A stretch of DNA of 64,000 bases. It comes from Candidatus Methanohalarchaeum thermophilum. Lineage in GTDB: Archaea; Halobacteriota; Methanonatronarchaeia; Methanonatronarchaeales; Methanonatronarchaeaceae. Made by a program: the position numbers and the translations under genes. A model generated the notes under the pieces. That model worked only from the letters and a program-made list of their open reading frames with translations. It did no database searches and was not told the origin of the DNA. This document shows, in pieces, positions 9,140-61,869 of this stretch. Location: NCBI GenBank assembly GCA_001914405.1, contig MSDW01000002.1, positions 124,001-188,000 of the forward strand, in the 5' to 3' direction. How positions within the stretch are numbered: position 1 is the stretch's first letter; each line of letters starts with the position of its first letter.

Positions 9140-9599
9140 CTAAATAGTTGAGAAGACACCTTCCTAAATTTTTAATTTAGGTAGTGTGATGAATCAACTA
9201 AAGATGTTTTAAGTGTTTCTAAGACTAATCAAGAGTAACTGGCAGTTGGTTGAAGGTCTGCCTTACCAAAAAGCAATTCCATGCCTTGAGGCATCTAGCT
9301 AAAGCCTCGGACTCTGCATCGAGAGGTGTATGGTAAGTAGTAAGGTAGATGGGTAAGCCCGAAACTTCGGGAGTAGGGTGTAGTGGTTGTGTGGAGCAAC
9401 CGAAAGTGAATAAGAGGAGCCATTGTGTAGCTAATATATGGGAACTGTGCCCCTAATCCAATTCTTCCTCAAAGCAATAGGTTCCCTGTTGATCAAGTGT
9501 ATGAGAGAAGCTTGGTGAAAAACAAACTCCTCTTTCGAGGATAAGGTCCACATGGAAGCCCCCTCCTAAATCATTTGATTTAGGTAGGGGTCACTTCAC
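9140..9599 (+). mobile_element. TnpB-less IS200/IS605-type element, full copy A
   Basis: A 460-bp non-coding element in plus orientation. After the flank TTTAT it begins CTAAATAGTTGAGAAGAC, followed by a left hairpin (CCTAAATTTTTAATTTAGG). The right hairpin is CCTAAATCATTTGATTTAGG and the end is GGTAGGGGTCACTTCAC. The interior includes GTAAGCCCGAAACTTCGGGA, also found at the 3' end of the intact tnpB at 21.05 kb. It closely resembles copies at 39698 and 61411. It has no credible ORF. Confidence 0.8.
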
Positions 9600-9754
9600 T
9601 GTGATATCATTGTCTCTCTAGTAAGAAGTCTTAGCTTTGAATTAAGATAAGAAATATCTTTAGATGGAATTTTTGTTTTTGGGTGGTGATCTGTTTATTT
9701 TTGTGTTTTTTGGTGGGTAGGGTTTTTTATTTGGTTTTTGGTTGTTTTGTTTTG

Positions 9755-10519
9755 TTAGATCTTTTGTTTCATTTTTTTGATGTATTGTGTTATTTGTTGG
9801 TTTTTTTTGTTTTTTTCTATTTTGTCTACTATTGCGCTTCCTACGATTACTCCGTCTGCTCCTGCTTTTCTTGCTTTTTTTACGTGGCTTGGTTTTGTTA
9901 TTCCGAAACCTACTGCTACTGGTAGGTCTGTATTTGATTTGACTTTTTTTATTAGTTTTTTTGTGGTTTCTTGGAAGTTTTTTCTCTTTCCGGTGACTCC
10001 TAGTCTTGATACTACATAGATGAATCCGCTTCCTTTTTCTGATATGGTTTTTATCCTTTTTTCGGTGGTTGTTGGTGCGACTAGGAAGATTTGGTTGATT
10101 TTTTTGTCTTTGATTTTTTTGGTTACTTGTTTTGATTCTTCTGGTGGCATGTCTGCTATTATTACTCCGTTTACTCCGATTTTTTCTGTTTTTTGGTAGA
10201 AGTTTTCTATGCCTTGGTTGTAGACGATGTTGTAGTATGTTAGTAATATTATTGGTATATCTGAGTATTTTCTTATTTCTTTTATGTATTGGTAGATTTG
10301 TTTTACTTTGAAGCCATTGTTTAGGGATCTGGCGTATGCTTTTTGGATTGTAGGTCCGTCTGCTGCTGGATCTGTGAATGGTATTCCTATTTCAAGGGCA
10401 TCTGCTCCTGCATCGATTATTTTTTTGGCTATTTCTAGGCTTTTTTTGTAATCTGGGTCTCCTGCTACTATGTATGGTATGAATGCTCCATCTTGGAAGG
10501 ATTTTTTTAGTTCATTCAT
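9755..10519 (-). CDS. trpA: Tryptophan synthase alpha chain
   Basis: Cleaves indole-3-glycerol phosphate to indole and glyceraldehyde 3-phosphate. It is a TIM barrel of 254 aa. Visible motifs are the catalytic Glu in [15 protein letters not shown] (with the second acid in DPAADGP), YYNIVYNQG, and the phosphate loops [10 protein letters not shown] and [10 protein letters not shown]. It is the last gene of the trp operon and overlaps trpB by 8 nt. A second ORF on the opposite strand here is a shadow. Confidence 0.97.
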
Positions 10520-11645
10520 GTTTTTGGACCTCTTCTACATCTTTGTCTCCTCTTCCTGATAGGTTTATTATCACTATATCGTCTCGTGTTACTTCTTTTT
10601 GTATTTTTGGTAATTGTGCTAATGCGTGGCTTGATTCTAGTGCTGGTATTATTCCTTCTTTTTTGGATAGTAATTTGTGGGCTTGGAGTGCTTCTTTATC
10701 GTTTGCAGTAGTGTAATTGATTCTATTTAATTCGTCGTAGAGTGAGTGTTCGGGGCCGACTCCAGGGTAGTCTAGTCCTGCGGCTATGCTTTCTGTTTCT
10801 TTGATTTGGCCTTCGTCTGTTTGCAGTATTTTTGAAAAGGATCCGTGTAGTACTCCTTCTAATCCTTTGGATATTGATGCGCTTCCTGCTGCTTCTACTC
10901 CTGTTAGTTTTATGTTTTTTTCTTCGATGAATTCCTTGAATATGCCTATTGCGTTGCTTCCTCCTCCTACACAGGCTATTATTCTGTCTGGTAGTTTTCC
11001 TTCTTTTTCTTGGATCTGTTTTTTTGTTTCTTTTCCGATGACGCTTTGAAAATCTCTTACTATCTTTGGGAAGGGTGATGGTCCTACTACTGATCCTATT
11101 AGGTAATGTGTGTCTTCAAGTTGCTTTACCCATGTTCTAAGTGATTCGTTTACTGCGTCTTTTAGTTTGGCTTCTCCTGAGGTTACTTCGTTTACTTTTG
11201 CTCCTAGTAGCTCCATTCTTCGTACATTCATTTTTTGTCTTTGTACATCTTCGTGTCCCATGTATATCTCAGTTTCAAGTCCTAGTTTTGCTCCTGCCAT
11301 TGATGTTGCTACTCCGTGTTGTCCTGCTCCTGTTTCTGCTATTATTTTATCTTTATCCATATGTTTGGCTAAAAGGGCTTGGCCAATTGTGTTATTTAAT
11401 TTGTGTGCTCCTCCGTGCAGTAGGTCTTCTCTTTTTAGGTATATTTTACATCCAAATTTATCTGATAGTTTTTTTGAATAAGTTAAGGGGGTTGGTCTTC
11501 CTGCGTACTCTTTTAGTAATTGGTCGAGTTCTTTTTTGAAGTCCTTGGTGTTTTTTATGTTTTCGTATTCTTCTTCTAGTTCGTCGAGTGCTGATATTAT
11601 TGGTTCTGGAACAAACTTTCCTCCATATTTACTAAACTCTCTCAT
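10512..11645 (-). CDS. trpB: Tryptophan synthase beta chain
   Basis: PLP enzyme joining indole to serine (377 aa). The PLP lysine is K82 in [16 protein letters not shown]. Also present are [11 protein letters not shown] (the family Glu), the phosphate-binding GGGSNAIG and the C-terminal GRGDKDV. Length and motifs are of the canonical TrpB1 type that partners TrpA, which is encoded directly downstream with an 8-nt overlap; trpF overlaps its start by 4 nt. Confidence 0.97.
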
Positions 11646-12214
11646 AGATTTAGGCCTCTTTTTAAGATCTTTTTCATCTTTTTGGTGTCTTTTGTTCCTT
11701 TAGAGGTTTCTATTCCTGATGAAACATCTATTCCATATGGATTTAGGTGATCTACTATTTCTTTAATATTATTTGGATTTATTCCGCCTGATACTAATAC
11801 TGGTTTGTTTATTGAATTCATTATTTTTTTATATAAGGTTATAGGTAATTTTTTTCCTTTTCCATGGCTTTTATCTAATAAAATAGCTTTTGAATGGCTT
11901 ATATTCTTTAGTTGTTTTTTATCGCTTACAGCTCTTATAAGAGGCTTTTTTAGTCTTATCTTGGGTTCTGAATATATCTGTATTGCATCGGCACTTGTTT
12001 TTTCGATCGATTTTAGTTTATCGCTTGAGGTGGTCTTTGTTACGCATACTTTAGTCGTGTAGGGGCCTAGTGATTTAAATATTTCTTCTGCTTTGTCGAG
12101 TTCTATTGATCGATTGGATTCTGTTTTAACGATAACCCCTATGGCATGGGCTCCTAGTTTTTCTGCTTTCTTTGCGTCTTTTTGGTTTTGGATCCCACAG
12201 AATTTTATGCGCAT
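11642..12214 (-). CDS. trpF: Phosphoribosylanthranilate isomerase
   Basis: Converts PRA to CdRP in tryptophan synthesis. It is a small TIM barrel (190 aa, slightly short). The catalytic Cys is in [11 protein letters not shown] near the N-terminus, the catalytic Asp in [10 protein letters not shown], and the phosphate loop is SGGINPNNI. It overlaps trpC by 10 nt and trpB by 4 nt. Confidence 0.95.
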
Positions 12215-12939
12215 AAGAACTTATCCACCTTTTTTTCTAGGTTATTTGATTTCATAAAAGCTGTTCCTATTAGAAAGGCATCACAGTAGTCTTCTAGCTC
12301 TTTAATGTCTTTAATATCTTTTATTCCACTTTCTGATACTGTGGTGATTTCTTCTGGTATGTATTGTGAAAGTTTTTTGGTTCTTTCTAGGTTGATCCCG
12401 AGTGTTTCGAGGTTTCTATTGTTTATTCCGATTAATTTTGTTTTCGTCTTTAAAGCTAGATCGAGCTCTTTTTTGGTTTTTACTTCTACTAATGGATCTA
12501 ATTTTAGTTTATTGGATAATTGAACAAATTCGGTTAATTTTTCGCCAAGTATTGATGTTATTAAGAGTACTGCATCTGCTTTATGTCTTTTTGTTTGGTA
12601 AAGTTGTCTTTTATCGTAGATAAAGTCCTTTCTTAGAACTGGTTTTTTGTAGATTTCTTTAACTCTATCTAAGTAATCGATTGATCCATTAAAGTAGTTT
12701 GATTCTGTTAATATTGAAAGTGAATTTAGTTTTTCCATTTTTCGTACTAGGTTCTCTAATTCTTCTTCTATTATTTTTCCTTCGCTTGGTGATTTGAATT
12801 TTATTTCACCAATTAGTGCGTTTTCTCTTTTTTCTAATGCTTTCTTAAGGCTATTTGATTTGTATTTATTTTTTATTAGTTTTGGTTCATTTGAAAGGTC
12901 TTCTTGGGCTTTCTTTTTAACTAGAATTTCTTTTAGCAT
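12205..12939 (-). CDS. trpC: Indole-3-glycerol phosphate synthase
   Basis: Cyclises CdRP to indole-3-glycerol phosphate (244 aa). The catalytic set is visible: GEIKFKSPSEG (Lys, Ser), LRKDFIYD (Lys, Asp), GINNRNLETLGI (Asn) and VSESGIKD (Glu, Ser). The start overlaps the end of trpD by 23 nt, which suggests translational coupling. It is a separate protein, not fused to TrpF as in enteric bacteria. Confidence 0.96.
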   Translation of the reverse strand: MLKEILVKKKAQEDLSNEPKLIKNKYKSNSLKKALEKRENALIGEIKFKSPSEGKIIEEELENLVRKMEKLNSLSILTESNYFNGSIDYLDRVKEIYKKPVLRKDFIYDKRQLYQTKRHKADAVLLITSILGEKLTEFVQLSNKLKLDPLVEVKTKKELDLALKTKTKLIGINNRNLETLGINLERTKKLSQYIPEEITTVSESGIKDIKDIKELEDYCDAFLIGTAFMKSNNLEKKVDKFLCA

Positions 12940-13951
12940 TTTTGATCACTTTTGGGTAATTTACTAGGTCCTTTAATTTGTTTAAGGCTTTTCCAGTTTC
13001 AATTGTTTTTTCTGCTATTTCAAATCCTTCTTTTATTGAGTTTACTGTACCTGTTAGGTAAATTAAAGCTCCTGCATTTGCTAATACTACTTGGCTTTTT
13101 TCTTTGGCTTCTCCGTTTAGTATTTTATTTAATATTTTTGCATTGTGGCTGGGGTTTCCTCCTTTTAGAGCCGATGGCTTGGTTTTTCGTATACCCATCT
13201 CTTCAGGAGATATCTGGTAATTAGAGATTTTTCCGTTTTTTAATTCGGAGATCTTGGTTTTTCCAACTGAAGATATTTCGTCCAATCCATCTCCGTGTAC
13301 TACCATAGCTCGTTTTAAGTCAAGTTCTCTTAGAACTTTAGCTATTTTTTCCGTTAAGTCTGGGGAAAAAACTCCTACTATCTGTATCTCTGGCTTTAAT
13401 GGATTTGTTAAAGGACCAAGAATGTTGAAAAACGTTCTTATGCCTATTCTTTTTCTAGGTTTCATTGCATTTTTCATTGATGGATGATATGATGGAGCAT
13501 AGAGAAAGGTTAAGTTAATCTCTTCTAGTAATTTTTTAGCTATCTCGGGTTTTATATCTAATTCAACTCCCAGTTCTTCTAGTACATCAGCAGATCCACA
13601 GTTACTGCTTATGCTTCTATTTCCATGTTTTGCTACAGTTATTCCTGCTCCAGCTGCTACAAAGGTAGCCACTGTGCTAATATTAAATGTATTGTAATTG
13701 TCTCCCCCTGTCCCACAGTTATCTGCTACTACATCGGTTTCACGGTCTATTTCGAGGGAATATTCTCTCATAACCTTTGCAAACTCAGTTAATTCTTCAT
13801 GGGTTTCTCCCTTCATCTTCATTGCAGTTATAAATGAAGCTATTTCTTCTGAACTTGCTTTTCCAGACATTATTTTATTCATTGCTCTTTTTGAACTATC
13901 TTTAGATAGGTTGGTTCCTTCAGTTGCTTTTTTAATTTCAGAAACTAACAT
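12917..13951 (-). CDS. trpD: Anthranilate phosphoribosyltransferase
   Basis: Transfers phosphoribose from PRPP to anthranilate (344 aa). The glycine-rich PRPP site GTGGDNYNTFNIST is at residues 80-93, followed by the Mg/anthranilate segment KHGNRSISSNCGSAD. The Mg-binding pair normally written DE appears in VHGDGLDEIS. It begins 2 bp after the trpG stop. Confidence 0.96.
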   Translation of the reverse strand: MLVSEIKKATEGTNLSKDSSKRAMNKIMSGKASSEEIASFITAMKMKGETHEELTEFAKVMREYSLEIDRETDVVADNCGTGGDNYNTFNISTVATFVAAGAGITVAKHGNRSISSNCGSADVLEELGVELDIKPEIAKKLLEEINLTFLYAPSYHPSMKNAMKPRKRIGIRTFFNILGPLTNPLKPEIQIVGVFSPDLTEKIAKVLRELDLKRAMVVHGDGLDEISSVGKTKISELKNGKISNYQISPEEMGIRKTKPSALKGGNPSHNAKILNKILNGEAKEKSQVVLANAGALIYLTGTVNSIKEGFEIAEKTIETGKALNKLKDLVNYPKVIKNAKRNSS

Positions 13952-13953
13952 TT

Positions 13954-14523
13954 CTAAACAACCTCCATTTGTAAGAAGTTTTTAATTATTTCATCGCCCA
14001 AAGGAGTTAGAATACTCTCAGTATGAAATTGTATACCAAATAAGGGCTTTTTTCTATGTCTAACGGCCATAATTTCTTTATTTCTGGTTTCTGCGATTTT
14101 TTGGAAACTACTTGGTATCTTTTGAGCTATCAGGGAATGATATCTGCCTGCCTGAAATCCCTGCGGTAGATCCTTAAATAAGGAAGAGTTATCATGGAAT
14201 ATTCTATCTTTTTTTCCATGTATGGGCTCACCCTTAACGACTTTCCCCTTAAACTGGGATACGAGCACTTGATGGCCTAAACAAACTCCTAATATCGGTT
14301 TATTTGTTTCTTCTACTAGTTCTCTACAAACTCCAGAATCTTCGGGCTTTCCGGGTCCAGGTGAAAAAACAATCCTTTCAAAGCCCATATCTAAAATTCT
14401 TTCGATTTCTTCGTCATTCTTCACTACCTTTGGCTCTCTATCTAAACGACCAATCTGTTGATACAGGTTGTAGGTAAAGCTATCGTAACAGTCAACGAGT
14501 AAAGTATCACTCATCTCTGTCAC
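13954..14523 (-). CDS. trpG: Anthranilate synthase glutamine amidotransferase subunit
   Basis: Class I glutaminase subunit supplying ammonia to TrpE (189 aa). The catalytic triad is C81 in GVCLGHQ plus His and Glu in IQFHTES. FSPGPGKPEDSG is the oxyanion-region signature. The ORF overlaps the trpE end by 17 nt; an internal ATG (MSDTLL, at 14511) is an alternative start that would shorten the overlap. Confidence 0.95.
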   Translation of the reverse strand: MTEMSDTLLVDCYDSFTYNLYQQIGRLDREPKVVKNDEEIERILDMGFERIVFSPGPGKPEDSGVCRELVEETNKPILGVCLGHQVLVSQFKGKVVKGEPIHGKKDRIFHDNSSLFKDLPQGFQAGRYHSLIAQKIPSSFQKIAETRNKEIMAVRHRKKPLFGIQFHTESILTPLGDEIIKNFLQMEVV

Positions 14524-15943
14524 CTCTAAATAATCTGAGTGCTTTCATTCCCGCTTTTCCCTTATCGATGGTTTCTTTCCATTCCTTCCTAGGAACGGAG
14601 TCTTTTACTATTCCTGCTCCCACCTGTAGCTGGACCTCGTTTTCTTTAACATGGAATGTTCTGATAGTTATCGCAAAATCCATCTCCTCGTTGAAAGAAA
14701 AGTAACCAACTGCTCCGGAATAGGGGCCTCTGGGGTCTTTCTCTAATTCATCGATTACTTGTATTGATCTTAGTTTGGGTGCTCCAGATACTGTTCCAGC
14801 TGGAAAACATGATCTAAATGCGTCGAACATATCTTTTTCTTTTTTAAGTCTTGCTATTACCTTTGAAGTGATGTGTTGTACATGTGAAAACTTTTTTATT
14901 CTTTTGAAATCTTTTACTCTCACTGATCCTATCTCCGATACTCTTCCAAGGTCGTTTCTAGCTAGATCAACTAGCATAACATGTTCCGATTTTTCTTTGG
15001 GATCTTGGAGTAGTTCCTGTGCTAGTTTTTTATCTTCGACTTTGTTACGGCCTCTAGAAATGGTTCCTGCTATTGGAACGGTCTCTACTTTATTACCAGA
15101 TGAACGAACCAGCATCTCTGGACTGCTTCCGATTATTTTTCTTTCATCAAAATCTAGGTGATATAAATACGAACTTGGGTTGACTTTTCTCAGATTAAAA
15201 TAGAGTTCTAGGGGATCTACTTGAACTGGGATATCTATTCTTCTGGAGAGAACAATTTGGTATGTTTCTCCTTCTTGTATGTATCTTTTGGCTTTTTCAA
15301 CTATGTCTTCGTATTCTTTTTGGCTGTAATTAGAGTTTATTTTATTTATTTCTATTTTTTTATGTTTTAGTTGTTTTTGTTGCATTGATTCTATTTCTTG
15401 AAGTTCTTGACTTAATTTACGCCTATTTGATTTTATTTGGGTTTTATCTGGATCTTTGAGGTATTTAATTAGGCTTAGTTCGTTTGTTGAGTGATTGTAT
15501 TTTAGGAATTTTTTGGGGAAGTAGAATTCAGCTAGTGGATGGTTCAGGTTTTTTTCTTTTAGTTTGTTTGAAATTTGATGTATGGTTTCAAAGGAGAAGT
15601 ATCCTACTATTCCTCCTGCAAATCTTGGAAAAGTAGGGTTATATACATTAATTTGATTGAATATTGATTTTATTCGATTTACTGGGTTTTTATTGTTTAA
15701 TTCATCTGTTTCTGTGACCTGTTCTTCTAGAATTGGTCCAGTTACTTTGGTGTTATTTTGGTTTATCTGGATTTTATCGTTACATTCGATGCTTAAGAGA
15801 CTGTAATTTATTCTATCTGATTCTAATTCCTTAGTTTCTAATAGAAAACCTTTTCCTTTTTCTTTATATATCTTACCTGGATCTATTTCTTTTTTAGGTT
15901 TTTTCTTTACTCTTACTGGATGTAATTTTGGTTTGCTAGACAT
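14507..15943 (-). CDS. trpE: Anthranilate synthase component I
   Basis: Chorismate-to-anthranilate enzyme (478 aa), first gene of the operon. The chorismate-binding C-terminal domain is clear: GETYQIVLSRR, IIGSSPEMLVR, PIAGTISRGRN, DLARNDLGRV, and PAGTVSGAPKLRSIQVIDEL. The N-terminal domain is AT-rich and less conserved, and the inhibitor motif region (LLES) reads LLETKELESDR. Upstream lies a divergent regulatory gap with repeated TGTCA/TGACA. Confidence 0.96.
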   Translation of the reverse strand: MSSKPKLHPVRVKKKPKKEIDPGKIYKEKGKGFLLETKELESDRINYSLLSIECNDKIQINQNNTKVTGPILEEQVTETDELNNKNPVNRIKSIFNQINVYNPTFPRFAGGIVGYFSFETIHQISNKLKEKNLNHPLAEFYFPKKFLKYNHSTNELSLIKYLKDPDKTQIKSNRRKLSQELQEIESMQQKQLKHKKIEINKINSNYSQKEYEDIVEKAKRYIQEGETYQIVLSRRIDIPVQVDPLELYFNLRKVNPSSYLYHLDFDERKIIGSSPEMLVRSSGNKVETVPIAGTISRGRNKVEDKKLAQELLQDPKEKSEHVMLVDLARNDLGRVSEIGSVRVKDFKRIKKFSHVQHITSKVIARLKKEKDMFDAFRSCFPAGTVSGAPKLRSIQVIDELEKDPRGPYSGAVGYFSFNEEMDFAITIRTFHVKENEVQLQVGAGIVKDSVPRKEWKETIDKGKAGMKALRLFRGDRDE

Positions 15944-19438: not shown

Positions 19439-19735
19439 CTTTTACACTTCTCTAACTTTAGTTTCCACTCTTTTAGCTTACCATAGATGTTTCTAGTTTT
19501 TGCCTTTTTATCTTCTTTATTTATTAGAATTATTAAAAGCTATTTAATTGAACTTAACTTAGGTAAATCCCTGTATCTGGTTTATGGGGTTTTTTATGTT
19601 TATTTTAATCTTTAGTCTATTTAATTGGTTTTTTATCTCATAGAGGTGTTTAATGTTTTTATTGGCTTTAGTTGGTTAAGTATTAAAGTTATTCAACGTA
19701 AATAACTATTAGGGTTTTGTATAATTTGATCTTAT
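19439..19735. other. AT-rich intergenic region
   Basis: About 300 bp between nadE and the left end of the TnpB element at 19736. It is very AT-rich and should contain the nadE promoter. I see no coding frame, hairpin or repeat in it. Confidence 0.5.
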
Positions 19736-19845
19736 CTATTTGACTGAGAAGACACCCTCCTATATCCCTGATTTAGGTGGGTGATAAATGAGTCTTCTGG
19801 AAAAACTTTAAACATAATTAAAAATATATATTATATGTTAGGAAA

Positions 19846-21183
19846 ATGAAGAAGTCATTGAGACAGAACCTACGAGGACTAACTAAACAAGAATATGAGA
19901 TATTGAAGAAGATGAGTCATAAATCCAAGGACCTATACAACGAAACACTCTACGAAGTAAGACAATACTTCTTCAACAATGGAGAATACCTAAGTTACTA
20001 CGACGCCTACGAACGACTTAAAGGAGAAAGCGAGAACTACAGAGTCTTACCTTCTCAAATGGCTCAACAAACAATGAAACACGTGGACAAAGCCTTCAAA
20101 TCATTCTTTAACTTAATCAAAAAGAAAAGAGAAGGTAAATACGATGCCGAAGCACACCCACCAAATTACCTAGAAAAAGACGGACACTTTTCACTAATCT
20201 ATCCAAATCAAAGTTTCCAAGTCAAAGAAAACCACATAAGAATCGGTGTCCCAAAAAATTTCAGAGAAAAATATGGGTACACCAAAAAAGAAATCCAGAT
20301 AGATTTCACTTACGAGAAACTAAAACAAAGCCACATAGACATCAAACAACTACACATAATTCCAAGAGCAAAAGCACAATACTTCGAATACAGAATAATT
20401 TACGAAGAAGAAAAAAAACCAGTTGAGACAAAGGAAGGTACTTGGTTAAGTATTGATTTAGGATTAGATAATTTAGCTACTTGTGTTGACCATCTTGGAC
20501 GCTCATTTATCTTGGATGGGCGATTACTCAAATCGTACAACAAGTGGTGGAACAAAGAAGTAGATAAGTTACAGAGTATTAAAGATAAACAAGGTATTGA
20601 AGGCAATACTAGGAGAATAAATAAGTTATTCCGAGACCGAAACAACTACGTGCATGATTATTTGAATAAAGCAACCAAAGCAATTGTTAACTACTGTAAA
20701 GAGAATAAAATCGAGAAAGTGTTTTGTGGGGATGGAAAGGGTTGGAAACGAGGAATTAATTTAGGTGGTAGCAACAACGAGAAATTTGTTCAAATATCTT
20801 TCGATAAGTTCAAGCAGAAACTTAAGCATAAGTTAGAGTTCTATGATATAGAGTTTGAGTTAGTTGATGAATCTTACACTAGTAAGTGCAGTTTCTTTGA
20901 TAGCGAGTCCATAGAACATCACGAAGAGTACGTTGGTTCAAGGGTGGAAAGAGGCTTATTTAAAACAAGTGATGGAGTTTTAATAAATGCTGATGTAAAT
21001 GGAGCACTAAATATCGCTAAGAAAGGATTAAAAGAAATAGATATGGGTAAGCCTGAAACTTCGGGAGTAGGGTCCAGTGGCGTTGTAGACACGCCAAGGA
21101 GAATAAGGAAACCCTTTAGGTTAGGATACGGCTCAAACATAAGCGAGAGCCTAATTCAAACTTCTCCTGAACCCCCTACCTAA
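19846..21183 (+). CDS. tnpB: TnpB RNA-guided nuclease (intact, variant RuvC)
   Basis: IS605 OrfB/TnpB of 445 aa. The N-terminal OrfB helix region is present ([20 protein letters not shown]). RuvC-I Asp is in [12 protein letters not shown] and RuvC-III Asp in [13 protein letters not shown]. The expected RuvC-II Glu block is replaced by [16 protein letters not shown], with no Glu at the usual place, a pattern of one TnpB branch. The zinc ribbon is degenerate ([10 protein letters not shown] without the second CxxC). The 3' 160 nt overlap the probable omega-RNA. Confidence 0.9.
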
Positions 21184-21209
21184 TCAAAGATTAGGAAGGG
21201 GTAGTTCAC
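21046..21209 (+). ncRNA. Probable omega-RNA/reRNA region of TnpB element
   Basis: The tnpB 3' end and right end form a structured region: GTAAGCCTGAAACTTCGGG, then AGTGGCGTTGTAGACACGCC (a stem around TTGTAGA), then the terminal hairpin CCTAATCAAAGATTAGG. TnpB elements generally produce a guide RNA from exactly this overlap, and the 5' part is conserved in the ~460-bp elements. The guide would start at 21210. Existence is inferred by analogy. Confidence 0.5.
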
Positions 21210-21255
21210 TTAGAAAGCTATTGTATTTTAATGGTGTTTTGTTGGCTGTGTAAGG

Positions 21256-26444: not shown

Positions 26445-26832
26445 TGCTCCCCTCACCTACTCAACCATCGGTTAAGGAACGCGTGCTTTCTATTTTTTCC
26501 CTTGGCCATAGATCCTGTCAATTTAGTTTACATACATACCGATAAAAACCTTATCGAGAAAATCTACAAGGACGGAACATCCACCTAGTCGGGGCCTACC
26601 ACCCACCTCGCAGACTTTGCCCTACAGAGCCCTAGTGCAACAGCAAAGTGGCTTATCCTGGATTCAAGACACAGCAACAACATTTCCAATTACAGAAAAA
26701 ACTTTTCTTCATTCAAAAAAGCTCTTCATTTTCCCTCTTCTCCTAGAACTTCCTCTATACCCTAAAGAACTCAAAAGTTTTCCTAACATCCAGCAACCAC
26801 TAATATCTCCTTCACAACATATAAAAGTCGTG
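26445..26832. repeat. Second MITE-like repeat family, copy 1
   Basis: Non-coding block related to 34110-34505. Shared stretches include TACCGATAAAAACC, the segment around TTGGCCA(C/T)AGATCC, GAACTCAAAAG(T/C)TTTC and a closing ATATCTCCTTCACAACATATA-like end. Gene-sized frames are absent. It is distinct from the TTCAC-ended elements and may be a dead transposon relic or a structured repeat. Confidence 0.45.
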
Positions 26833-27115
26833 AAGTGACCTCACAGCAAAGCTGTGGGGCTTCCCTGCGAGCAATTCTGCCTTCACACCAGGCTTCTCTC
26901 ATTCACCCCGGTCAGCAGGGAACTTACGCTTCGGACGAAACCATCCTGCATGAGTGGCAGGGTATTTTTTGGTCGCCCCTGCATTTCTTAGGAGCTGTTA
27001 CAAGTTCTCTGTAGCTTCACACTACTCGACGCCACCTCACCCCAACCTCTCGATTTCTTGAAAGGTAGAACATGTAAAGCACCCAAAAAAGCCCCACTTT
27101 TGGAGATAAAAAGAT
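26833..27115 (-). mobile_element. TnpB-less IS200/IS605-type element, divergent copy
   Basis: It begins with GTGAAGTGAC (the right end in minus orientation) and a hairpin CACAGCAAAGCTGTG. It continues with CTTCCCTGCGAGCA and the core CAGCAGGGAACTTACGC, also found in the copies at 32172 and, inverted, in copies B and C. The left end is not recognisable, so it is a partial or divergent copy. Confidence 0.5.
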
Positions 27116-27159
27116 ACTTAGTAATATTAAAATTTAAGTTTAACAGAATTCACCCTCAC

Positions 27160-27215
27160 GCCAAGCCGCGAGGTTCTCCCCCTCACTCTACTATAGAGGG
27201 ATAATTTCACGGAAA
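27160..27215 (-). repeat. Short palindromic repeat, CTATAGTAGAGT family
   Basis: Second copy of the ~55-bp repeat, inverted: on the minus strand CTCTATAGTAGAGTGAGG, then GAGAACC, then the hairpin CCTCGCG/CGTGAGG. The arms differ in sequence from the other copies but remain complementary. Confidence 0.5.
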
Positions 27216-39697: not shown

Positions 39698-40153
39698 CTA
39701 AATAGTTGAGAAGACACCTTCCTAAATCTTTTGATTTAGGTGGGTGATGAATCAACTAAAGATGTTTTAAGTGTTTTTAAGACTAATTAAGAGTAACTGG
39801 CAGTTGGTTGGGAGTCTGCCTTACCAAAAAGCAATCCCATGTCTTGAGGTAATGGCTAAAGCCTCGGACTCTACATCGAATAGGTGTATGGTAAGTAGTA
39901 AGGTAGATGGGTAAGCCCGAAACTTCGGGAGTAGGGTGTAGTGGTTGTGTGGAGCAACCAGAGTGAATAAGGGAGCCATTGTGTAGCTAATATATGGGAA
40001 CTGTTCCCTAAGTCCAGACTTCACTCAGAGCGCAAGTTCCCTGTTGACGGTGTATATGAGACAAGCACCGTGGAAAACAAACTCCTCTTTCGAGGACAAG
40101 GTCACAGGGAAGCCCCCTCCTAAATCATTTGATCTAGGAAGGGGTCACTTCAC
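39698..40153 (+). mobile_element. TnpB-less IS200/IS605-type element, full copy B
   Basis: A 456-bp copy closely matching A and C. It starts CTAAATAGTTGAGAAGAC after TTTTAT and ends GGAAGGGGTCACTTCAC. Foldable parts of the right half: TTCCCTG(TT)GAC pairs with GTC(AC)AGGGAA, enclosing ACGGTG/CACCGT and CCTC-TTTC-GAGG hairpins, a three-way junction just before the terminal hairpin. Confidence 0.82.
39985..40153 (+). ncRNA. Putative solo omega-RNA in element copy B
   Basis: The right ~170 nt fold on paper into a three-way junction (arms ACGGTG/CACCGT and CCTC/GAGG within a TTCCCTG/CAGGGAA stem), followed by the right-end hairpin and TTCAC. The position corresponds to the omega-RNA of TnpB elements. 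Transcription is not shown; this is inference from structure and relatedness to the tnpB element. Confidence 0.4.
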
Positions 40154-40157: not shown

Positions 40158-40216
40158 TCTATCTCTATAGTAGAGTAAGAGAGAGAAACCATGCCTTGCT
40201 ATGCAGGTTATTTCAC
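40158..40216 (+). repeat. Short palindromic repeat, CTATAGTAGAGT family
   Basis: Third copy: CTCTATAGTAGAGTAAGAG, then AGAGAAACC, a small hairpin in CCATGCCTTGCTATGCAGG and GTTATTTCAC. It abuts the right end of element copy B, so it could be its flank or a target site. Confidence 0.5.
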
Positions 40217-40728: not shown

Positions 40729-40784
40729 GTGAACTACCCCTACCTAATCAAAAGACTTAGAAAGGTGTCTTCTCAGTCAAATAG
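40729..40784 (-). repeat. 56-bp fused right-end/left-end mini-element
   Basis: Starts GTGAACTACCCCTACCTAA (a right end, minus orientation) and ends GGTGTCTTCTCAGTCAAATAG (a left end), with one hairpin shared between them. It is the whole element with its interior deleted through the similar palindromes. The left flank is TTTAT on the minus strand. Confidence 0.7.
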
Positions 40785-52256: not shown

Positions 52257-52313
52257 GTGAAGTAACCCCTACCTAAATCAGAGATTTAGGAGGGTGTCTT
52301 CTCAGTCCAATAG
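52257..52313 (-). repeat. 57-bp fused right-end/left-end mini-element
   Basis: Begins GTGAAGTAACCCCTACCTAA and ends GGGTGTCTTCTCAGTCCAAT, joined in one hairpin AAATCAGAGATTT. On the minus strand it follows TTTAT. It is nearly the same length and structure as the one at 40729. The truncated P-type ATPase frame starts immediately beyond it. Confidence 0.72.
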
Positions 52314-53320: not shown

Positions 53321-53386
53321 TCATTTTTACTTTGGTTAACCACTCATTTTCTTCTTAATTGGGGAAGAGTGTTTTCGTGTGAGGAG

Positions 53387-54157: not shown

Positions 54158-55224
54158 CAGTATTCCCTCCCTTTTATTACTAGGTAAATGAAGAGTGGTG
54201 CGCCTAGGAAGGAAGTTACGATTCCTACGGGTAATACGATTGGGGTGAATGCTGTTCTTGCTCCAGTATCAGATACAAGTAATATTAGTGCCCCTATTAG
54301 GCAGGATGATGGTATTAGGAATTTTTCGTCTCCTCCTATGATTTTTCTTATTATGTGAGGGACTACGAGTCCTATGAACCCTATTATTCCGACAAATGAT
54401 ATTATTAGTGATGTTATAAATGATGATAATAGCATTCCCTTGATTCTTAGTTTTTCTACATTTATTCCTAGGCTTTTTGCTACATCGTCTCCGGAATCGA
54501 GTATATTGTAGTCCCAGCCCTTGTATGTGAAATAAGCTATTGAGGGAGCAACGAATAATGTCATTAGTCCTAGGTCGGTCCATGTTGCTCTTCCTATATC
54601 GCCAAATGTCCAATAAACTATTGTGGATAACTGGGTTTGGTCAGCAAAGTATTGCATAGAAGAATACCCTGCAGTAAATAGTGAACCTAAGGCTATTCCA
54701 GTTAGGATCATAGTCGCTGGCGAGGCTTTCTTTAATTTAGCTAGGAGGAGGATTATCAGGGTACATACCAGTGACCAGAAGAAGGCTGAAATTGGGACTA
54801 TGTATGGGTTATTTAGGACTATGGTTCCGCCTGTTTGGGCTGTTCCTGCTCCTAGAAATATTACTGCGAATGCAGCTCCGAATGCGGCTGCATGAGAAAT
54901 TCCTAGTGTATATGGAGAGGCTAATGGGTTTTTTAGTACACTCTGCATCACCGCCCCCGATATAGAGAGCCCGATTCCAGCTACGATAGCAGTTAATACC
55001 CGTAGTATTCTAATATTCCATAATACATTTGTCGCTATTTCCGTTCCTTTTCCCATAAATACATAAGCTATGTCTTTTATAGAGATTGGTACTGGCCCTA
55101 ATAAGAATGATAAGAGTATAGATATAAAGAGAAGAAATGAGGAGATAAGGAGGAAGCTAGTTTTTCGGTTTAATATTTTTTTATATTTCTTAATTTCCTG
55201 GCTCCGTTCTGTTTCTCCATTCAT
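54154..55224 (-). CDS. FecCD/BtuC-type permease
   Basis: Permease of 356 aa with ten or so membrane segments. Signatures: RILRVLTAIVAGIGLSISGA near residue 70, QSVLKNPLASPYTLGIS, and FVGIIGFIGLVVPHIIRKII, the coupling segment to the ATPase. Imports iron chelates, haem or cobalamin. Confidence 0.95.
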   Translation of the reverse strand: MNGETERSQEIKKYKKILNRKTSFLLISSFLLFISILLSFLLGPVPISIKDIAYVFMGKGTEIATNVLWNIRILRVLTAIVAGIGLSISGAVMQSVLKNPLASPYTLGISHAAAFGAAFAVIFLGAGTAQTGGTIVLNNPYIVPISAFFWSLVCTLIILLLAKLKKASPATMILTGIALGSLFTAGYSSMQYFADQTQLSTIVYWTFGDIGRATWTDLGLMTLFVAPSIAYFTYKGWDYNILDSGDDVAKSLGINVEKLRIKGMLLSSFITSLIISFVGIIGFIGLVVPHIIRKIIGGDEKFLIPSSCLIGALILLVSDTGARTAFTPIVLPVGIVTSFLGAPLFIYLVIKGREYW

Positions 55225-55250
55225 TTTTAATAGTTCTTTTTAAATGAGTT

Positions 55251-56348: not shown

Positions 56349-56587
56349 CAGACCATCTCTTTTTGCATTATATTTGGTTCCCAATATTTAAATATTACTA
56401 ACATCACGAAAAGTAACACGATTCACATAAAATCACTTCTATAATTAATAAAAAAACATAGCCAACACAAAAACACAAAAAACACAAAACCCAAAACACA
56501 CAAGCAAAAAACAAAAAAACCACAAAACCCATAAAAAACTACAAAACCAACAAAACACTATCCAAAAAACACAAAACCCAAAACACA

Positions 56588-57382
56588 TTAATCCGAACCA
56601 AAAAAAGTAAAAAACCCTCCAAAATAAATAGCAAACAAAGCAACAGTAGAAAAAACCACTAAAAAATAAAATAACACATCAGGAACCCCCAGGATCCTAG
56701 CACCAACCAAAGGCTCTGCTGAAACCCCTCCAAGAAAAACCCAATGTCTAATCCCCAACTGAGGCAAAAAAACATACAAAGGTAAATCAAGCAACCCAAC
56801 AACCCCAGAAACCCAAAAAAACATATTTCTACGACTAAATACAGCAAAAAACCACGAAACAAGATTAGTCGATAAAGAGCCTCCTAATAAATAAATACCT
56901 CTCCCAAAATCACTCTCAAATCCCGAAAATAAAACTTTTCCAAGTTTAAATTCACTAACCAAGCGTATACCAGGATAGAGTTCAACAAAACCTATTTTCA
57001 AATAACTCAATTCGCCTCCACCAATCAACCCCCAAAATACATGTCCAAACTCGTGAACTGCACACATAAAAAAACTAGCTAAAAAAACTACAAGAATCAA
57101 CGCCAAGAAATTACTCTTCCTTGATTTAAATCTATTAAACAAAAAAATTAATAGATAGAAAATAGCAGCCCAAAAAACTAGGTCAAGAAAAAAATTGCTC
57201 CAAAAAATTTCCTGCTGCCTAAAAATAACTGAGGTCCTCCACACAAGTGGATAGCCATAGTATTCGATCTCAGGTATACCTATTGAAGGACTATTTTCAA
57301 CTAACCCCAATACCAAAGTAGATATAAACCCTAATAAGGTAGCTAAACTAATATTACTATATTTTAAACCCCTAAGATCCAT
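56588..57382 (-). CDS. Membrane metalloprotease-like protein with HEFGH
   Basis: Membrane protein of 264 aa with about six hydrophobic segments. CAVHEFGHVFWG (~residues 109-120) lies at a membrane segment, fitting an M50/site-2-like zinc protease. No obvious NPDG is seen; the second ligand could be the Asp in VGLLDLPLYVF. Single gene, convergent with none. A role in intramembrane proteolysis or as a zinc enzyme is inference. Confidence 0.65.
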   Translation of the reverse strand: MDLRGLKYSNISLATLLGFISTLVLGLVENSPSIGIPEIEYYGYPLVWRTSVIFRQQEIFWSNFFLDLVFWAAIFYLLIFLFNRFKSRKSNFLALILVVFLASFFMCAVHEFGHVFWGLIGGGELSYLKIGFVELYPGIRLVSEFKLGKVLFSGFESDFGRGIYLLGGSLSTNLVSWFFAVFSRRNMFFWVSGVVGLLDLPLYVFLPQLGIRHWVFLGGVSAEPLVGARILGVPDVLFYFLVVFSTVALFAIYFGGFFTFFGSD

Positions 57383-57444
57383 TTTAATACAGACATGATC
57401 ATATTATTTATTTTTAATTCACATCTACAAGCCCAGTAACTTGA

Positions 57445-57857
<413 letters not shown>

Positions 57858-58147
57858 AAATTTGACTTGGCATTAAGTGGTATTCGGTAGACCAAGATAT
57901 TTTTTTCCCTGAAAAGCATTCTCTTCAAGATTATTAAAAAAATGTTAATCGTTTAATAATTTACTAATAGGGTTTTTTACAAAATTTATTTTATTTTATA
58001 GTTTCTCGGGTCTTTTAGTTATCTATTTATTGCTAGTTATGTCTTTGTCTTGTTTTTAGTTTATTTTTGTCTTTTTAAGGTTTTTGGATTTGTTTTATTT
58101 GAGGTTTATTCACTTCTTGTGGTGGTTAGATTTTTTTACTTTGTTTT
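57858..58147. other. T-rich intergenic region
   Basis: About 290 bp of T-rich sequence downstream of the ABC-2 permease stop. It may include its transcription terminator in T runs (58120-58145). No gene or repeat. Confidence 0.4.
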
Positions 58148-59017
58148 TTAGGTTATGTCGGTTTTTCTGAAGACTAGGTAACCTAGGATTGGTGGTATGG
58201 TTATCCATATTAGCATTGTTGCTAGGAATGTGTAGTTTGTTAGGTAGAATGGTATGGTTTCTGTTCCGATTAGTGTGCTGATGTCTGTATATTGGCTGAA
58301 TTGGCCTAGATCCATTAATTCATTCGATAGGGTTCCAAAGGCTCCGTTTGGTGTTATTCTTTGTAAAAAAACAAACCACGCGGGTAGTGTTTCTTGCTGG
58401 CCTGCTGCGTATGGTATTGTTCTGTTGATTACGTAGTATATGCCCATTATGAATGTGTCCCAGAGGAACATGAAGAAGAAATACACTGCTACTGCCCATC
58501 CAAGTGCTTTGGTTTTTGTATCTGTTGCGGCTGAAAAACCTATTGATATACTTAGAAAAGATATTGCAAGTAGAATTGTTAAGAATATAAATATCATGAA
58601 ATTTGTTATTAGAAATTTATCGTAAAATGCAGCTATTATTATAGATGCTATTATGAAGGCTATTGCTATTGGTACTATAGCTACTAGTGATCGGCCTATC
58701 CATTTCCCGAGTACCACATCGAATCTTGTGTTAGGTAATCCGAGCAGGGTTTTTATTGTTCCAAAATCTCTTTCTCCTGCTATAGCCATGTAACCTATCA
58801 TTAAAGATATTAAAGGAACTATTAAAGATATAATACCCTGTAATGGTATTATTGCATTGTCTGAGGTTAAGTTTTCGCCTATTATTGCTTCAGGAAGGAT
58901 AGAGACTATAAAAGTTCCTCCTGCTATTAAAACCAAGAAAATTAATGTAACAATCCAGAGGCTACTGGATCTTATTGAATCCTCAAAGTCTTTTTTTGCT
59001 ATATTTATCCAACTCAT
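58148..59017 (-). CDS. ABC-2 type transporter membrane subunit
   Basis: Membrane subunit of 289 aa with about six segments, of the NosY-like/ABC-2 membrane group. N-terminal NIAKKDFEDSIRSSSLW and the coupling motif GERDFGTIKTLLGLPNTRFD are typical. Encoded 3 bp after its ATPase. Exports an unknown substrate. Confidence 0.9.
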   Translation of the reverse strand: MSWINIAKKDFEDSIRSSSLWIVTLIFLVLIAGGTFIVSILPEAIIGENLTSDNAIIPLQGIISLIVPLISLMIGYMAIAGERDFGTIKTLLGLPNTRFDVVLGKWIGRSLVAIVPIAIAFIIASIIIAAFYDKFLITNFMIFIFLTILLAISFLSISIGFSAATDTKTKALGWAVAVYFFFMFLWDTFIMGIYYVINRTIPYAAGQQETLPAWFVFLQRITPNGAFGTLSNELMDLGQFSQYTDISTLIGTETIPFYLTNYTFLATMLIWITIPPILGYLVFRKTDIT

Positions 59018-59020
59018 TCT

Positions 59021-59923
59021 TCATTTCTCCGTTAAGATTGCAAAAATATCATCCAATGATGATTCCTTAGTCCTCAAGTCAATTATCCGAGTATTTTCAC
59101 GCTCTATGACCTCAAATATCTCGCTTCTAACAACATCTCTACCAGCCTCAATTTCGATAACATTATCTTCTACCTCAACTGATTTGACTCCCTCCATCCC
59201 TTCAAGTTCTCTGAGATCCGGTACTTCGTTTACCTCGATCCTCATATACGAAGACCTACCAGTTCTTTCTCTTAAACCCTCTATAGTATCTTCAGCCACA
59301 ATTTTTCCGTCCTTAAGTATCCCAACTCTATCCGAGACCTTTTCCACCTGTTCAAGTATGTGACTCGAGAAAAAAACCGTTGCTCCTCTATCTTTTTCTT
59401 CCTTAACTATCTCTCTAACCATTCTCGCTCCATTCGGATCAAGACCAGTAGTAGGTTCATCCAATATAAATAACTCGGGTTCTCCAACCAATGCAATACC
59501 TAAGCATAGCCTCTGTTTCATTCCCTTAGAATAAGTTCCTGCTCTTTTATCCGCATCATGAAATAACCCAACTCTCTCAAGTACCTTTGATATATCAGTA
59601 TCTGCATTCTTAGTTTCTTTTGCAAATTTTAAGTGCTTAAAACCAGTTAATCTACTATACACATTAGAAACTTCGGGTAAATACCCAATATTTTTCCTTA
59701 TATCCAAACTATTCTCTTGAGCATCCAACCCAAGAACCTCGGCCTCACCACTATCAGGCCGAATAAAATCCAAAAGAATCCTTATTGTAGTGGTTTTACC
59801 AGCCCCATTAGGCCCAAGAAAACCAAACACCTCACCAGACCCAACAGACAAATCCACCTCTCTCAAAGCTTCTATTCCATCATAAGACTTAGTTAATCCT
59901 CTTGTCTCAATCGCATTCTTCAA
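59021..59923 (-). CDS. ABC exporter ATP-binding protein
   Basis: ATPase of 300 aa: Walker A GPNGAGKTTTIRILLDF, signature-region YSKGMKQRLCLGIAL, Walker B ELFILDEPTTGLDPNG, H-loop FFSSHILEQVEKV. A C-terminal ~80-residue domain (IRTKESSLDDIF-like end) is common to ABC-2 exporters. It is the first gene of a two-gene operon. Confidence 0.94.
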   Translation of the reverse strand: MKNAIETRGLTKSYDGIEALREVDLSVGSGEVFGFLGPNGAGKTTTIRILLDFIRPDSGEAEVLGLDAQENSLDIRKNIGYLPEVSNVYSRLTGFKHLKFAKETKNADTDISKVLERVGLFHDADKRAGTYSKGMKQRLCLGIALVGEPELFILDEPTTGLDPNGARMVREIVKEEKDRGATVFFSSHILEQVEKVSDRVGILKDGKIVAEDTIEGLRERTGRSSYMRIEVNEVPDLRELEGMEGVKSVEVEDNVIEIEAGRDVVRSEIFEVIERENTRIIDLRTKESSLDDIFAILTEK

Positions 59924-59968
59924 TCAATCTCCTCCAAGACTAAAGAATAAATAAGCAAATTAAATTAT

Positions 59969-60433
59969 GTGAAGTGACCCCTACCTAAATCAGAGATCTT
60001 GGAGAGGGCTTCCATGCAGACCTTATCCAAATGAAGTTTGCCAAGCATCAGGCTTCTCTCATACACCTACTCAACATGGAAAACTTTAAGGAAGAACTGG
60101 ATTAGGGCACAAAGCCCATATATTAGCTACACAATAGCCCCCTTATTCCTCAAAGGCTGCTCCACACCAACCACTAGACCCCCTACTCCAAAACCGTTTC
60201 AGGCTTACCTATCTACCCCAATACTTACTTACTTACCTATACATCTCTCGATGTAGAGTCTGAGGCTTTAGCCAGATGCCTCAAGGGCATGGGATTGCTC
60301 TTTGTTCAAAAGGCAGACAAACCAACCAACTGCCAAGTCCATTATTTGTCTTAGAAACACTTAAAATATCTGTAATTGATTCATCACCCACCTAAATCAA
60401 AAGATTTAGGAAAGTGTCTTCTCAGTAAAATAG
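59969..60433 (-). mobile_element. TnpB-less IS200/IS605-type element, full copy D
   Basis: A 465-bp copy in minus orientation: right end GTGAAGTGACCCCTACC, left end CTATTTTACTGAGAAGAC after TTAT on the minus strand. The interior is largely colinear with A-C (GGATTAGGGCACAAAGCCC, GCTGCTCCACACC, CCCCTACTCC, GACTCTACATCGAGAG inverted). Its left end resembles the tnpB element at 19736 more than A-C. Confidence 0.78.
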
Positions 60434-60607
60434 ATAATTGCTATTTAATTTTACTCCACTTATTTAACTTATTTAAGGGCTATGATTGATTTATTCTTTT
60501 ATCTAAACCCATAAGCTCCTTTCACTTAATCTACTATAAATCCAGAGACTTAACCTATTAGGGAAAAAGTTAATTAACTCGATAGATTTAGGTTTACTCG
60601 ATCTTCT

Positions 60608-60892
60608 ATGTCTAAAGTAAATGAGGTTTTAAAGGAAAAAGGTATCGATTTTGAAGAAGAGGTCGTTGAGAAACTGATGGATGGAGGAGCACTAGATCCA
60701 GAAACTAAGCGTCTTATGACAATTGCATGTGCTACTGCAGTCGACTGTAAAGAATGTGTAAACCACCACACTAAGCTCGCAAAAAAAGAGGGAATTGAGG
60801 AAGAAAAAATAGAAGAGGCTATGTTAGTTGCTTCTTTAGTAGGTTTTGGCTCAAGATCAAAGCACTTAGCCCAATACAAAAACAAAAACTAA
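60608..60892 (+). CDS. Carboxymuconolactone decarboxylase/AhpD-like protein
   Basis: Soluble 94-aa all-helical protein with the CMD/AhpD motif AVDCKECVNHHTKLA (CxxC...H), the redox-active pair of AhpD-like peroxide-defence proteins. Downstream MLVASLVGFGSRSKH is typical. The usual size for the small family members is 90-120 aa. It lies alone between repeats. Confidence 0.9.
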   Translation: MSKVNEVLKEKGIDFEEEVVEKLMDGGALDPETKRLMTIACATAVDCKECVNHHTKLAKKEGIEEEKIEEAMLVASLVGFGSRSKHLAQYKNKN

Positions 60893-60929
60893 CCAATCCC
60901 ACACACAGATTTTACTTCATTTATCTAGA

Positions 60930-61145
60930 GTAACATCCTCCTCTTACTGAAGGAAGCGGCTTCTATCTATTTACCCGTGTCATCTACTTTCAGGTTACCG
61001 ATGGAAGCTTCCAGAGACACTCTAGAAAGGAGAGACACTCGCCTTTAATTAGTCACCTACCTACCCTAACCAGCTTGTCAACCAAAAAGACCCCCAAAAA
61101 CAAGACCAACCAGTAGTGACCTCTCAACCCCACAACAAAAACCCC
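60930..61145 (-). mobile_element. TnpB-less element remnant
   Basis: Truncated copy related to the one at 7851: GTAACATCCTCCTCTTACTG, ACCCGTGTCATCT, GGTTACCGATGGAAGC and TCACCTACCTACC occur in the same order. The far end fades into an A/C-rich stretch (61150-61380) with no feature. Confidence 0.45.
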
Positions 61146-61410
61146 CCTATCCAAAGCAGAGAACTTATACCTACATTCCAGTAAAAAGAACCCCCACATA
61201 CCATACAAACTCAGAACAATACCAAAAACCCATTACCCTAAATCAAAAATTAGAAATACACAAAAACAAAATCCAAGAAAAAACCCATGCACCCCCACCT
61301 AAAGAAAAAGAACTATACAGCTCTCCCAAAACCCCCAAAAAAGCTAATAAAAAAACAAAATTGTAAAACCAGAGCCTAAAAAAAAAGAAAGGCCCTCAAT
61401 CTTGAGTTAT

Positions 61411-61869
61411 CTAAATAGTTGAGAAGACACCTTCCTAAATTTTTAATTTAGGTGGGTGATGAATCAACTAAAGATGTTTTAAGTGTTTTTAAGACTAATT
61501 AAGAGTAACTGGCAGTTGGTTGGGAGTCTGCCTTTTGAACAAAAAGCAATCCCATTGTCTTTGAGGTAATGGCTAAAGCCTCGGACTCTGCATCGAGAGG
61601 TGTATGGTAAGTAGTAAGGTAGATGGGTAAGCCCGAAACTTCGGGAGTAGGGTGTAGTGGTTGTGTGGAGCAACCGGAGAGAATAAGGGGGCTATTGTGT
61701 AGCTAATATATGGGAACTGTTCCCTAAGTCCAGACTTCACTCAGAGCGCAAGTTCCCTGTTGACGGTGTATATGAGATAAGCACCGTGGAAAACAAACTC
61801 CTCTTTCGAGGATAAGGTCACAGGGAAGCCCCCTCCTAAATCATTTAATTTAGGTAGGGGTCACTTCAC
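61411..61869 (+). mobile_element. TnpB-less IS200/IS605-type element, full copy C
   Basis: A 459-bp copy, nearly identical to B (shared runs such as GTTCCCTAAGTCCAGACTTC and ACTCAGAGCGCAAGTTCCCT) and close to A. Left flank GAGTTAT, then CTAAATAGTTGAGAAGAC; it ends GGTAGGGGTCACTTCAC. The near identity to B indicates recent movement or gene conversion. Confidence 0.82.

What the first reader, a model, noticed from the sequence alone, without database searches (positions are those of the whole stretch)
9140..61869. A swarm of ~460-bp TnpB-less elements that look like mobile solo omega-RNA genes
At least twelve gaps hold a non-coding element sharing its left end (CTAAATAGTTGAGAAGAC type), right end (GGGGTCACTTCAC) and the segment GTAAGCCCGAAACTTCGGGA with the intact tnpB element at 19736-21209. 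Full copies lie at 9140-9599, 39698-40153, 59969-60433 and 61411-61869; diverged ones at 5317, 7851, 26833, 32172, 34573, 40234, 44036, 47497 and 57445. None has an ORF, yet paired changes preserve hairpins. TnpB elements make guide RNAs from this region (established). That these copies are stand-alone guide-RNA genes served in trans by a TnpB is inference.
Basis: partly seen in the sequence, partly recalled or inferred. Interest (0 to 1): 0.85.

Follow-up and report, generated by a model that had tools for sequence, protein, structure and literature searches.

The report
Protein-less jumping guide-RNA elements
This archaeal genome carries dozens of tiny mobile DNA elements that seem to make no protein but keep a conserved folded RNA closely related to the guide RNA of a neighbouring TnpB nuclease, so they may ride on that nuclease as guide-RNA parasites.

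Summary
The four full copies are real, but the list mixes several element families: 7 of the 13 places listed carry one RNA family by covariance model. In the part of the genome fetched there are 78 full-length copies; 60 have TTATC within 45 bases on the left and 73 end in TTCAC.

A model built only from ORF-less copies finds the 3' end of the intact tnpB element (window 21042-21167, 74.1 bits, E about 1e-16). Compensatory changes support the helices: 8 of 17 pairs in the H4 domain, against 0-3 when slid; one H3 pair ranks first of all column pairs under a tree-aware null. Among 392 genomes only this one and one other genus match. There the core is kept while the right terminal hairpin is replaced in 3 of 4 copies parsed.

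They are palindrome-associated IS605-type elements (PATEs, a known kind) carrying an omega-RNA-like core plus a domain (H4) found in no tnpB-linked RNA here. Mobility is well supported and RNA function likely. Use by TnpB in trans is inference: there were no expression or binding data. Only 1 of 16 tnpB copies of the matching family is uninterrupted.

The parts
9141..9599 (+). solo element, subfamily A; TTATC at 9136-9140 on its left; core RNA 9348-9469, H4 domain 9470-9561, terminal hairpin to 9599; putative guide from 9600
   Evidence: R1 127.3 bits, R2 100.2 bits
39699..40153 (+). solo element, subfamily A; core RNA 39906-40024, H4 40026-40115
   Evidence: R1 135.1 bits, R2 99.9 bits
61412..61869 (+). 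solo element, subfamily A; core RNA 61622-61740, H4 61742-61831
   Evidence: R1 131.4 bits, R2 101.5 bits; fold z -2.59 for 61627-61885
59969..60432 (-). solo element, subfamily C; TTATC on its left; core RNA 60089-60213, H4 60006-60088
   Evidence: R1 136 bits, R2 71.9 bits
47497..47943 (-). diverged solo element of the same family; no TTATC at its left
   Evidence: R1 33.1 bits, R2 50.2 bits
40225..40714 (+). diverged solo element of the same family (left boundary approximate)
   Evidence: R1 30 bits, R2 61.2 bits
32172..32581 (-). solo element with the same RNA but other terminal hairpins (left boundary approximate)
   Evidence: R1 91 bits, R2 58.3 bits, sequence
26830..27196 (-). second solo RNA family; matches the H4 model only; TTCAC end; left end begins near TCTATAGTAG
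   Evidence: R2 53.8 bits at 26857-26933; sequences
19737..21209 (+). tnpB element, TTATC at 19732-19736, right end GGGGTAGTTCAC
19846..21183 (+). uninterrupted tnpB gene, 445 aa; candidate protein partner
   Evidence: PF01385 E 5.3e-26, PF07282 E 2e-10; NF040570 guided_TnpB 185.8 bits, cut-off 100
21042..21209 (+). tnpB-linked omega-RNA region, overlapping the 3' end of tnpB; 21042-21167 matches the solo-RNA model
   Evidence: R1 74.1 bits; fold z -3.13 for 21047-21225

Best explanation
These are non-autonomous IS200/IS605-type elements (PATEs) that have dropped their protein genes and kept two things: ends that a TnpA supplied in trans can cut, and a structured RNA whose core is homologous to the tnpB omega-RNA. 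Most likely working: (1) TnpA from sibling elements excises and inserts them next to TTATC (shown: many dispersed copies beside TTATC; inferred: which TnpA). (2) An RNA read rightward through the element runs past the TTCAC end and takes up the first bases of the flank as its guide (inferred). (3) The uninterrupted TnpB of the window binds the shared core and cuts empty sites reading TTATC plus guide, so the element is copied back and kept (inferred from the known TnpB pathway). The 5' hairpin region and the H4 domain are features of the solo lineage; I assume they stabilise the RNA or help it compete for the protein, which is a guess.
For: A model made only from 40 solo copies hits, over its full length, 16 tnpB-linked RNAs in this genome and one in a second genus; the window's intact tnpB scores 74.1 bits. 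Compensatory changes: H4 on a plain alignment, 8 of 17 pairs with changes on both sides (shuffled mean 4.6; slid 0-3), score 0.222 against at most 0.052 slid; core on a plain alignment, score 0.134 against at most 0.034 slid and 0.086 shuffled; core on an alignment fitted to the model, 13 of 15 pairs, 0.279 against at most 0.071 slid. One H3 pair is C-G in 15 of 17 tnpB-linked RNAs and G-C in 51 of 91 solo RNAs, with C-G also in 17 of the 91. TTATC within 45 bases on the left in 60 of 78 full copies, as at the tnpB element; right end TTCAC in 73 of 78. The first 16 bases of the right flank differ in all 60 copies tested. In 3 of 4 copies of the other genus parsed, the right terminus is replaced (median identity 0.39-0.47) while the core stays at 0.72-0.76. 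TnpA frames of 141 and 136 aa without stops lie within about 1.6 kb of a TAGTTCAC end.
Against: No transcript, guide or protein binding was seen. H4 was found with no tnpB-linked RNA, so the solo RNAs may be made for something else. On the plain core alignment doubly changed pairs (3 of 15) and further pair types (7) are no more than in shuffles (2.8 and 7.8). Under the tree-aware null only one H3 pair stands clear; the second-ranked column pair (E 0.05) is no pair of my model, and the H2b pair and a second H3 pair are not significant. The strand test was inconclusive, 41 G-U against 31 A-C cells. Fifteen of 16 tnpB-linked copies in this genome have no uninterrupted gene. In the fourth copy of the other genus the right terminus is conserved (0.90) and the core is 0.69. 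The cut-and-keep role is taken from other TnpB systems.
Confidence: 0.6

Rival explanations
1. The RNA is real but works against or beside TnpB: a decoy or satellite that occupies TnpB (or another protein) through the shared core, with the extra domains doing the work, and the flanking guide is not used.
For: H4 occurs only in elements without a tnpB gene, and the 5' hairpin is strongly conserved. Solo copies (78 full-length in fetched sequence) far outnumber uninterrupted TnpB genes of the matching family (one).
Against: The core and its 3' position next to the flank are kept as in tnpB elements, and the TTATC flank is the same.
Confidence: 0.17
2. Passive relics: PATEs born from tnpB elements by deletion, moved by TnpA alone, with the RNA part kept only by descent and gene conversion.
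For: PATEs formed by core deletion from IS605-type elements are described in Haloquadratum (PMC3119063, passages). Terminal-only elements of about 50 bp, which would move without any RNA, are also present here.
Against: Compensatory changes, a core conserved in another genus while the right end was replaced in 3 of 4 copies, and a domain that no tnpB-linked RNA here has.
Confidence: 0.15
3. The helices act in single-stranded DNA during transposition, not in RNA.
For: IS605-type TnpA works on single-stranded terminal hairpins (established, recalled). The G-U over A-C excess is too weak to assign RNA.
Against: The interior helices are shared with the tnpB 3' region, where omega-RNA lies in other TnpB systems (PMC10278001, passages); TnpA is known to need only the ends (recalled).
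Confidence: 0.08

Closest known systems
PATEs (palindrome-associated transposable elements) of Haloquadratum walsbyi (PMC3119063, passages seen)
   Same: Too short to code, near-terminal palindromes, ends like IS605-type transposons, many diverged copies, a 52-bp terminal-only form; [quoted passage not shown]
   Different: Here the interior is a conserved structured RNA with covarying helices, an omega-RNA-like core and the H4 domain; the passages I saw speak of no RNA.
TnpB omega-RNAs, including haloarchaeal sotRNAs (Rfam RF02656, RF02657; PMC12558985 and PMC10278001, passages seen)
   Same: Position at the right end, overlap with the 3' end of tnpB in the homologous element, helices, guide expected from the flank.
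   Different: Solo copies have no tnpB and carry extra 5' and H4 parts; in the window only a tRNA reached an Rfam gathering score.
PATE-like IS605 element of Halanaerobium hydrogeniformans (PMC7290912, passages seen)
   Same: Part of the left end, the last 58 nt of tnpB and the whole 160-nt right end.
   Different: One such sequence is reported; the passages I saw give end hairpins but no guide RNA.
HEARO / IscB omega-RNA elements and Geobacillus PATEs (recalled from Weinberg 2009, Altae-Tran 2021 and Meers 2023; the last two are not held)
   Same: Recalled: mobile structured guide RNAs that also occur without a protein gene nearby.
   Different: IscB RNAs lie upstream of the gene (so PMC12558985, passage); no sequence comparison was made here beyond the Rfam scans.

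Membership tests
PATE (IS605-type non-autonomous element) | no transposase or tnpB gene inside | tested here: met
   No PF01385 or PF01797 match lies inside the seven window copies. In the 460 bases left of 102 right ends (336 for one) the longest stop-free stretches were 45-152 codons. Of 32 ends inspected, 15 same-strand stretches of 110 aa or more that end within 700 bases were scanned against Pfam: only two, pieces of one interrupted tnpB left of C1:1170054, were TnpB-like.
PATE (IS605-type non-autonomous element) | near-terminal palindromes, no terminal inverted repeats | tested here: met
   Subfamily folds and terminal sequences; no separate test for inverted repeats was run.
PATE (IS605-type non-autonomous element) | no target duplication | tested here: inconclusive
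   Joined flanks of two copies match paralogous sequence across the junction with small gaps (70-77% identity); no exact empty site was found.
PATE (IS605-type non-autonomous element) | ends shared with IS605-type elements of the same genome | tested here: met
   TTATC left and TTCAC right at the tnpB and solo elements; left-end profile matches at tnpB elements.
TnpB omega-RNA | sequence and structure homology to a tnpB-linked right-end RNA | tested here: met
   R1 hits, E about 1e-16 for the window tnpB.
TnpB omega-RNA | covarying helices | tested here: met
   Strong for H4 and H3; H1, H2 and H2b weaker.
TnpB omega-RNA | transcribed with a guide from the flank and bound by TnpB | not testable with these tools
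   No RNA-seq or binding data.
Rfam families (sotRNA, HEARO and others) | score above the gathering cut-off | tested here: not met
   Window scan, only a tRNA; four loci at E up to 1 gave two matches (a microRNA family and HgcC), both far below their cut-offs.

The most novel reading that the evidence does not exclude
A long-lived RNA-only lineage of IS605 elements, older than the split of two archaeal genera, that has its own RNA domains and lives as a satellite of TnpB and TnpA: dozens of solo RNAs with different guides, served by a single intact nuclease gene or by an unknown partner.
Probability: 0.3. Interest if true: 0.78.

Novelty: new variant of a known kind. Interest (0 to 1): 0.6.

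Why it matters
If the solo RNAs are loaded into TnpB, one nuclease would be programmed by dozens of unlinked mobile guide genes. That would be a mobile counterpart to a dispersed CRISPR array, and a test of whether RNA-guided retention lets protein-less elements persist. The H4 domain and the 5' hairpin are concrete, conserved RNA modules with no assigned role.

Tried and rejected
An IscB/HEARO origin was considered because RRXRR (IscB-like) remnants occur; not preferred, since the core matches tnpB-linked RNAs. A hit for the 5' motif in a Herpetosiphonaceae MAG (L234) matched neither RNA model and is taken as chance. A tblastn scan of named genomes with the window TnpB confirmed no relative, and a viral scan with the 5' motif found none; both may leave out the window's own or very near genomes. 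A strand test by G-U against A-C cells was inconclusive. The all-copy alignment was too diverse for RNAalifold, so subfamilies and covariance models were used. Empty sites were sought by joining flanks; only 70-77% paralogous matches in held sequence span the junction. TTATC plus the first 8 guide bases was sought for 60 guides in held sequence: one match, with 3 mismatches in 16.

Rows dropped or not used: three 34-nt profile hits and one copy cut by a fetch edge (56 to 52 copies); three of 52 copies without complete boundaries; 12 of 52 diverged copies left out of A1 and A4; A5 used 29 of the 32 copies listed. Sources for R1 and R2 were chosen by me: 42, 91, 82, 4 and 10 loci. Identities used 24 of 52 copies that my anchors could parse and 4 copies of G001; the left-end values include flank and are not quoted. 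H2 positions were shifted by one, so I quote none of them.
Full report
What was checked. The window is G000:C2:124001-188000 of a 2.14-Mb, four-contig genome. No tool names its organism. The one other genome with the same elements, G001, has three contigs of exactly the lengths of records of archaeon SCG-AAA382B04. I suspect a member of the Methanonatronarchaeia, from recall only.

Observation. The four full copies exist at the stated places. A profile and two covariance models put seven of the 13 listed places into one family: 9141, 39699, about 40225 and 61412 on the + strand; 32172, 47497 and 59969 on the - strand. The copy at 26830 belongs to a second RNA family that matches only the H4 model, and 44036 to a third with another right end. 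5317, 34573 and 57445 are other palindrome-ended elements, and 7851 shows only palindromic GTCAC-type ends. The tnpB element shares the left-end type and the final TTCAC, not the whole right end.

Scale. Blastn with the 9140 copy gives 54 matches in the genome. The right-end pattern gives 123 sites against 9 for its reversed control, and 14 against 3 in G001. In the fetched 454 kb, 78 full-length copies (more than 350 of 466 profile positions, reaching the right end) were counted; 60 have TTATC within 45 bases on the left and 73 end in TTCAC. The fetched sequence was selected by similarity, so these are lower bounds. Of 102 right ends held, 32 without a full family match were inspected. Fifteen same-strand stop-free stretches of at least 110 aa ending within 700 bases of them were scanned against Pfam: three are host-type proteins (PyrI, TFIIB, a CobB/CobQ-like protein), one has bacterial PH domains, nine match nothing, and two are pieces of one interrupted tnpB at C1:1170054, 116 bases from the end. 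What lies between looked to me like a separate terminal-only element.

Relation to tnpB. Model R1 was built from 40 solo copies only. Over 91 sources it finds 108 matches: 100 in G000, of which 16 are tnpB-linked, and 8 in G001, of which one is tnpB-linked; ten further sources gave two more clear matches. The window's tnpB region 21042-21167 scores 74.1 bits. A 317-bp element (C1:307132-307448) joins the solo left half to the tnpB-type RNA and the TAGTTCAC end, with no stop-free stretch over 58 codons. Only the window's tnpB is uninterrupted over its 445 codons. Of the other 15 family copies in this genome, 14 carry stops or frame breaks and one is seen only as a C-terminal piece without a PF01385 match. 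At least seven share one inserted base, so protein-dead but RNA-bearing copies seem to have multiplied (inference). The window TnpB passes NCBI's guided_TnpB model. It has IDLG and NADVN motifs; NADXN is the Derived-TnpB RuvC-III motif in PMC10278001 (passage). Where its RuvC-II glutamate lies I did not settle.

RNA anatomy. From 5' to 3': a hairpin GGCAG...CTGCC followed by a conserved CAAAAAGCAATCCC; variable hairpins; the core with H1, H2, H2b and H3; H4, a stem with two inner hairpins; and the terminal palindrome. The centroid fold of one copy shows H1, H3, the H4 stems and the terminal hairpin, but not H2 (z -2.59, 4 of 200 shuffles as stable). The tnpB RNA has z -3.13 (1 of 200).

Covariation. 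H4 on a plain alignment: 96.6% of cells paired, 8 of 17 pairs with double changes (shuffled mean 4.6), score 0.222 against at most 0.052 for slid partners. Core on a plain alignment: score 0.134 against at most 0.034 slid and 0.086 shuffled, and 19 doubly changed cells against 7.6 shuffled; but the number of doubly changed pairs (3 of 15, shuffled mean 2.8) and of further pair types (7, shuffled 7.8) is not raised. Core on the model-fitted alignment of 108: 13 of 15 pairs, 0.279 against at most 0.071 slid. Against a null that replays substitutions on a tree (60 simulations, solo and tnpB-linked rows together), the H3 pair 97-105 ranks first of all column pairs; second is a non-pair at E 0.05, and the rest, including the H2b pair and the second H3 pair, are not significant. 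The copies look mosaic, which may raise the background. The strand test gave 41 G-U against 31 A-C cells, not decisive.

Spread. R1 matches 2 of 392 genomes of the phylum, this one and G001 (2 of 136 genera; stricter filters that lose weak matches). The 9140 element matches the same 2 of 60 relatives. In 3 of 4 G001 copies parsed the right terminus is replaced while the core is kept (0.72-0.76), with H4 at 0.61-0.87; in the fourth the right terminus is conserved. H4 was found 29 times in the G000 sources searched: 28 have no same-strand PF01385 match within 1.5 kb upstream, and the 29th (18.9 bits, E 0.11) lies beyond the right end of the tnpB element before it.

Mechanism. Insertion beside TTATC with varied right flanks (60 of 60 different over 16 bases) and TnpA frames near TAGTTCAC ends fit TnpA mobilisation in trans. 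The homologous core at the right end next to the flank fits a guide RNA. That TnpB uses it in trans is inference from the known pathway (PMC10278001, passages).

Known or new. PATEs have been described since 2011 (PMC3119063, passages), and a PATE-like element with a tnpB 3' end since 2020 (PMC7290912, passages). My searches for PATEs with TnpB, solo or non-autonomous omega-RNAs, HEARO with IscB, and sotRNA listed no title or abstract on covarying solo omega-RNA elements. The library lacks most subscription papers, and I recall that Meers 2023 mentions PATEs with guide RNAs. Hence: new variant of a known kind.

Noticed in passing
window 26830-27196 (-); C1:261769, 283978, 1505989 and others: A second family of ORF-less elements, ten copies printed, matches the first only in the H4 domain and right end; its left end starts near TCTATAGTAG instead of TTATC.
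   Followed up: partly
window 44036 to about 44460 (-); C1:450199, C2:306989: A third element with a structured-looking interior and end TAGTTGAC, three very similar copies, one beside an IscB-like (RRXRR) remnant.
   Followed up: no
window 52257-52312 (-), 40729-40783 (-), about 40160-40216 (+); C2:215262, C1:1471309: Terminal-only elements of about 50 bp, as known from Haloquadratum.
   Followed up: no
C1:307132-307448 (L011:23-339): Hybrid ORF-less element: solo left half fused to tnpB-type RNA and end.
   Followed up: partly
C1, segments starting 532912, 536993, 662037, 678461, 937244, 1199872, 1425100: Seven interrupted tnpB copies share an inserted base at one site, so broken copies seem to have spread.
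   Followed up: partly
window 5317, 7851, 34573, 57445: Other palindrome-ended elements or palindromic ends, closing in GTCAC, with no match to either RNA model.
   Followed up: no
C2:306328, C2:122228, C1:95809 (L111-L113): IscB/IsrB-like RRXRR genes, each with stops inside the matched stretch.
   Followed up: no
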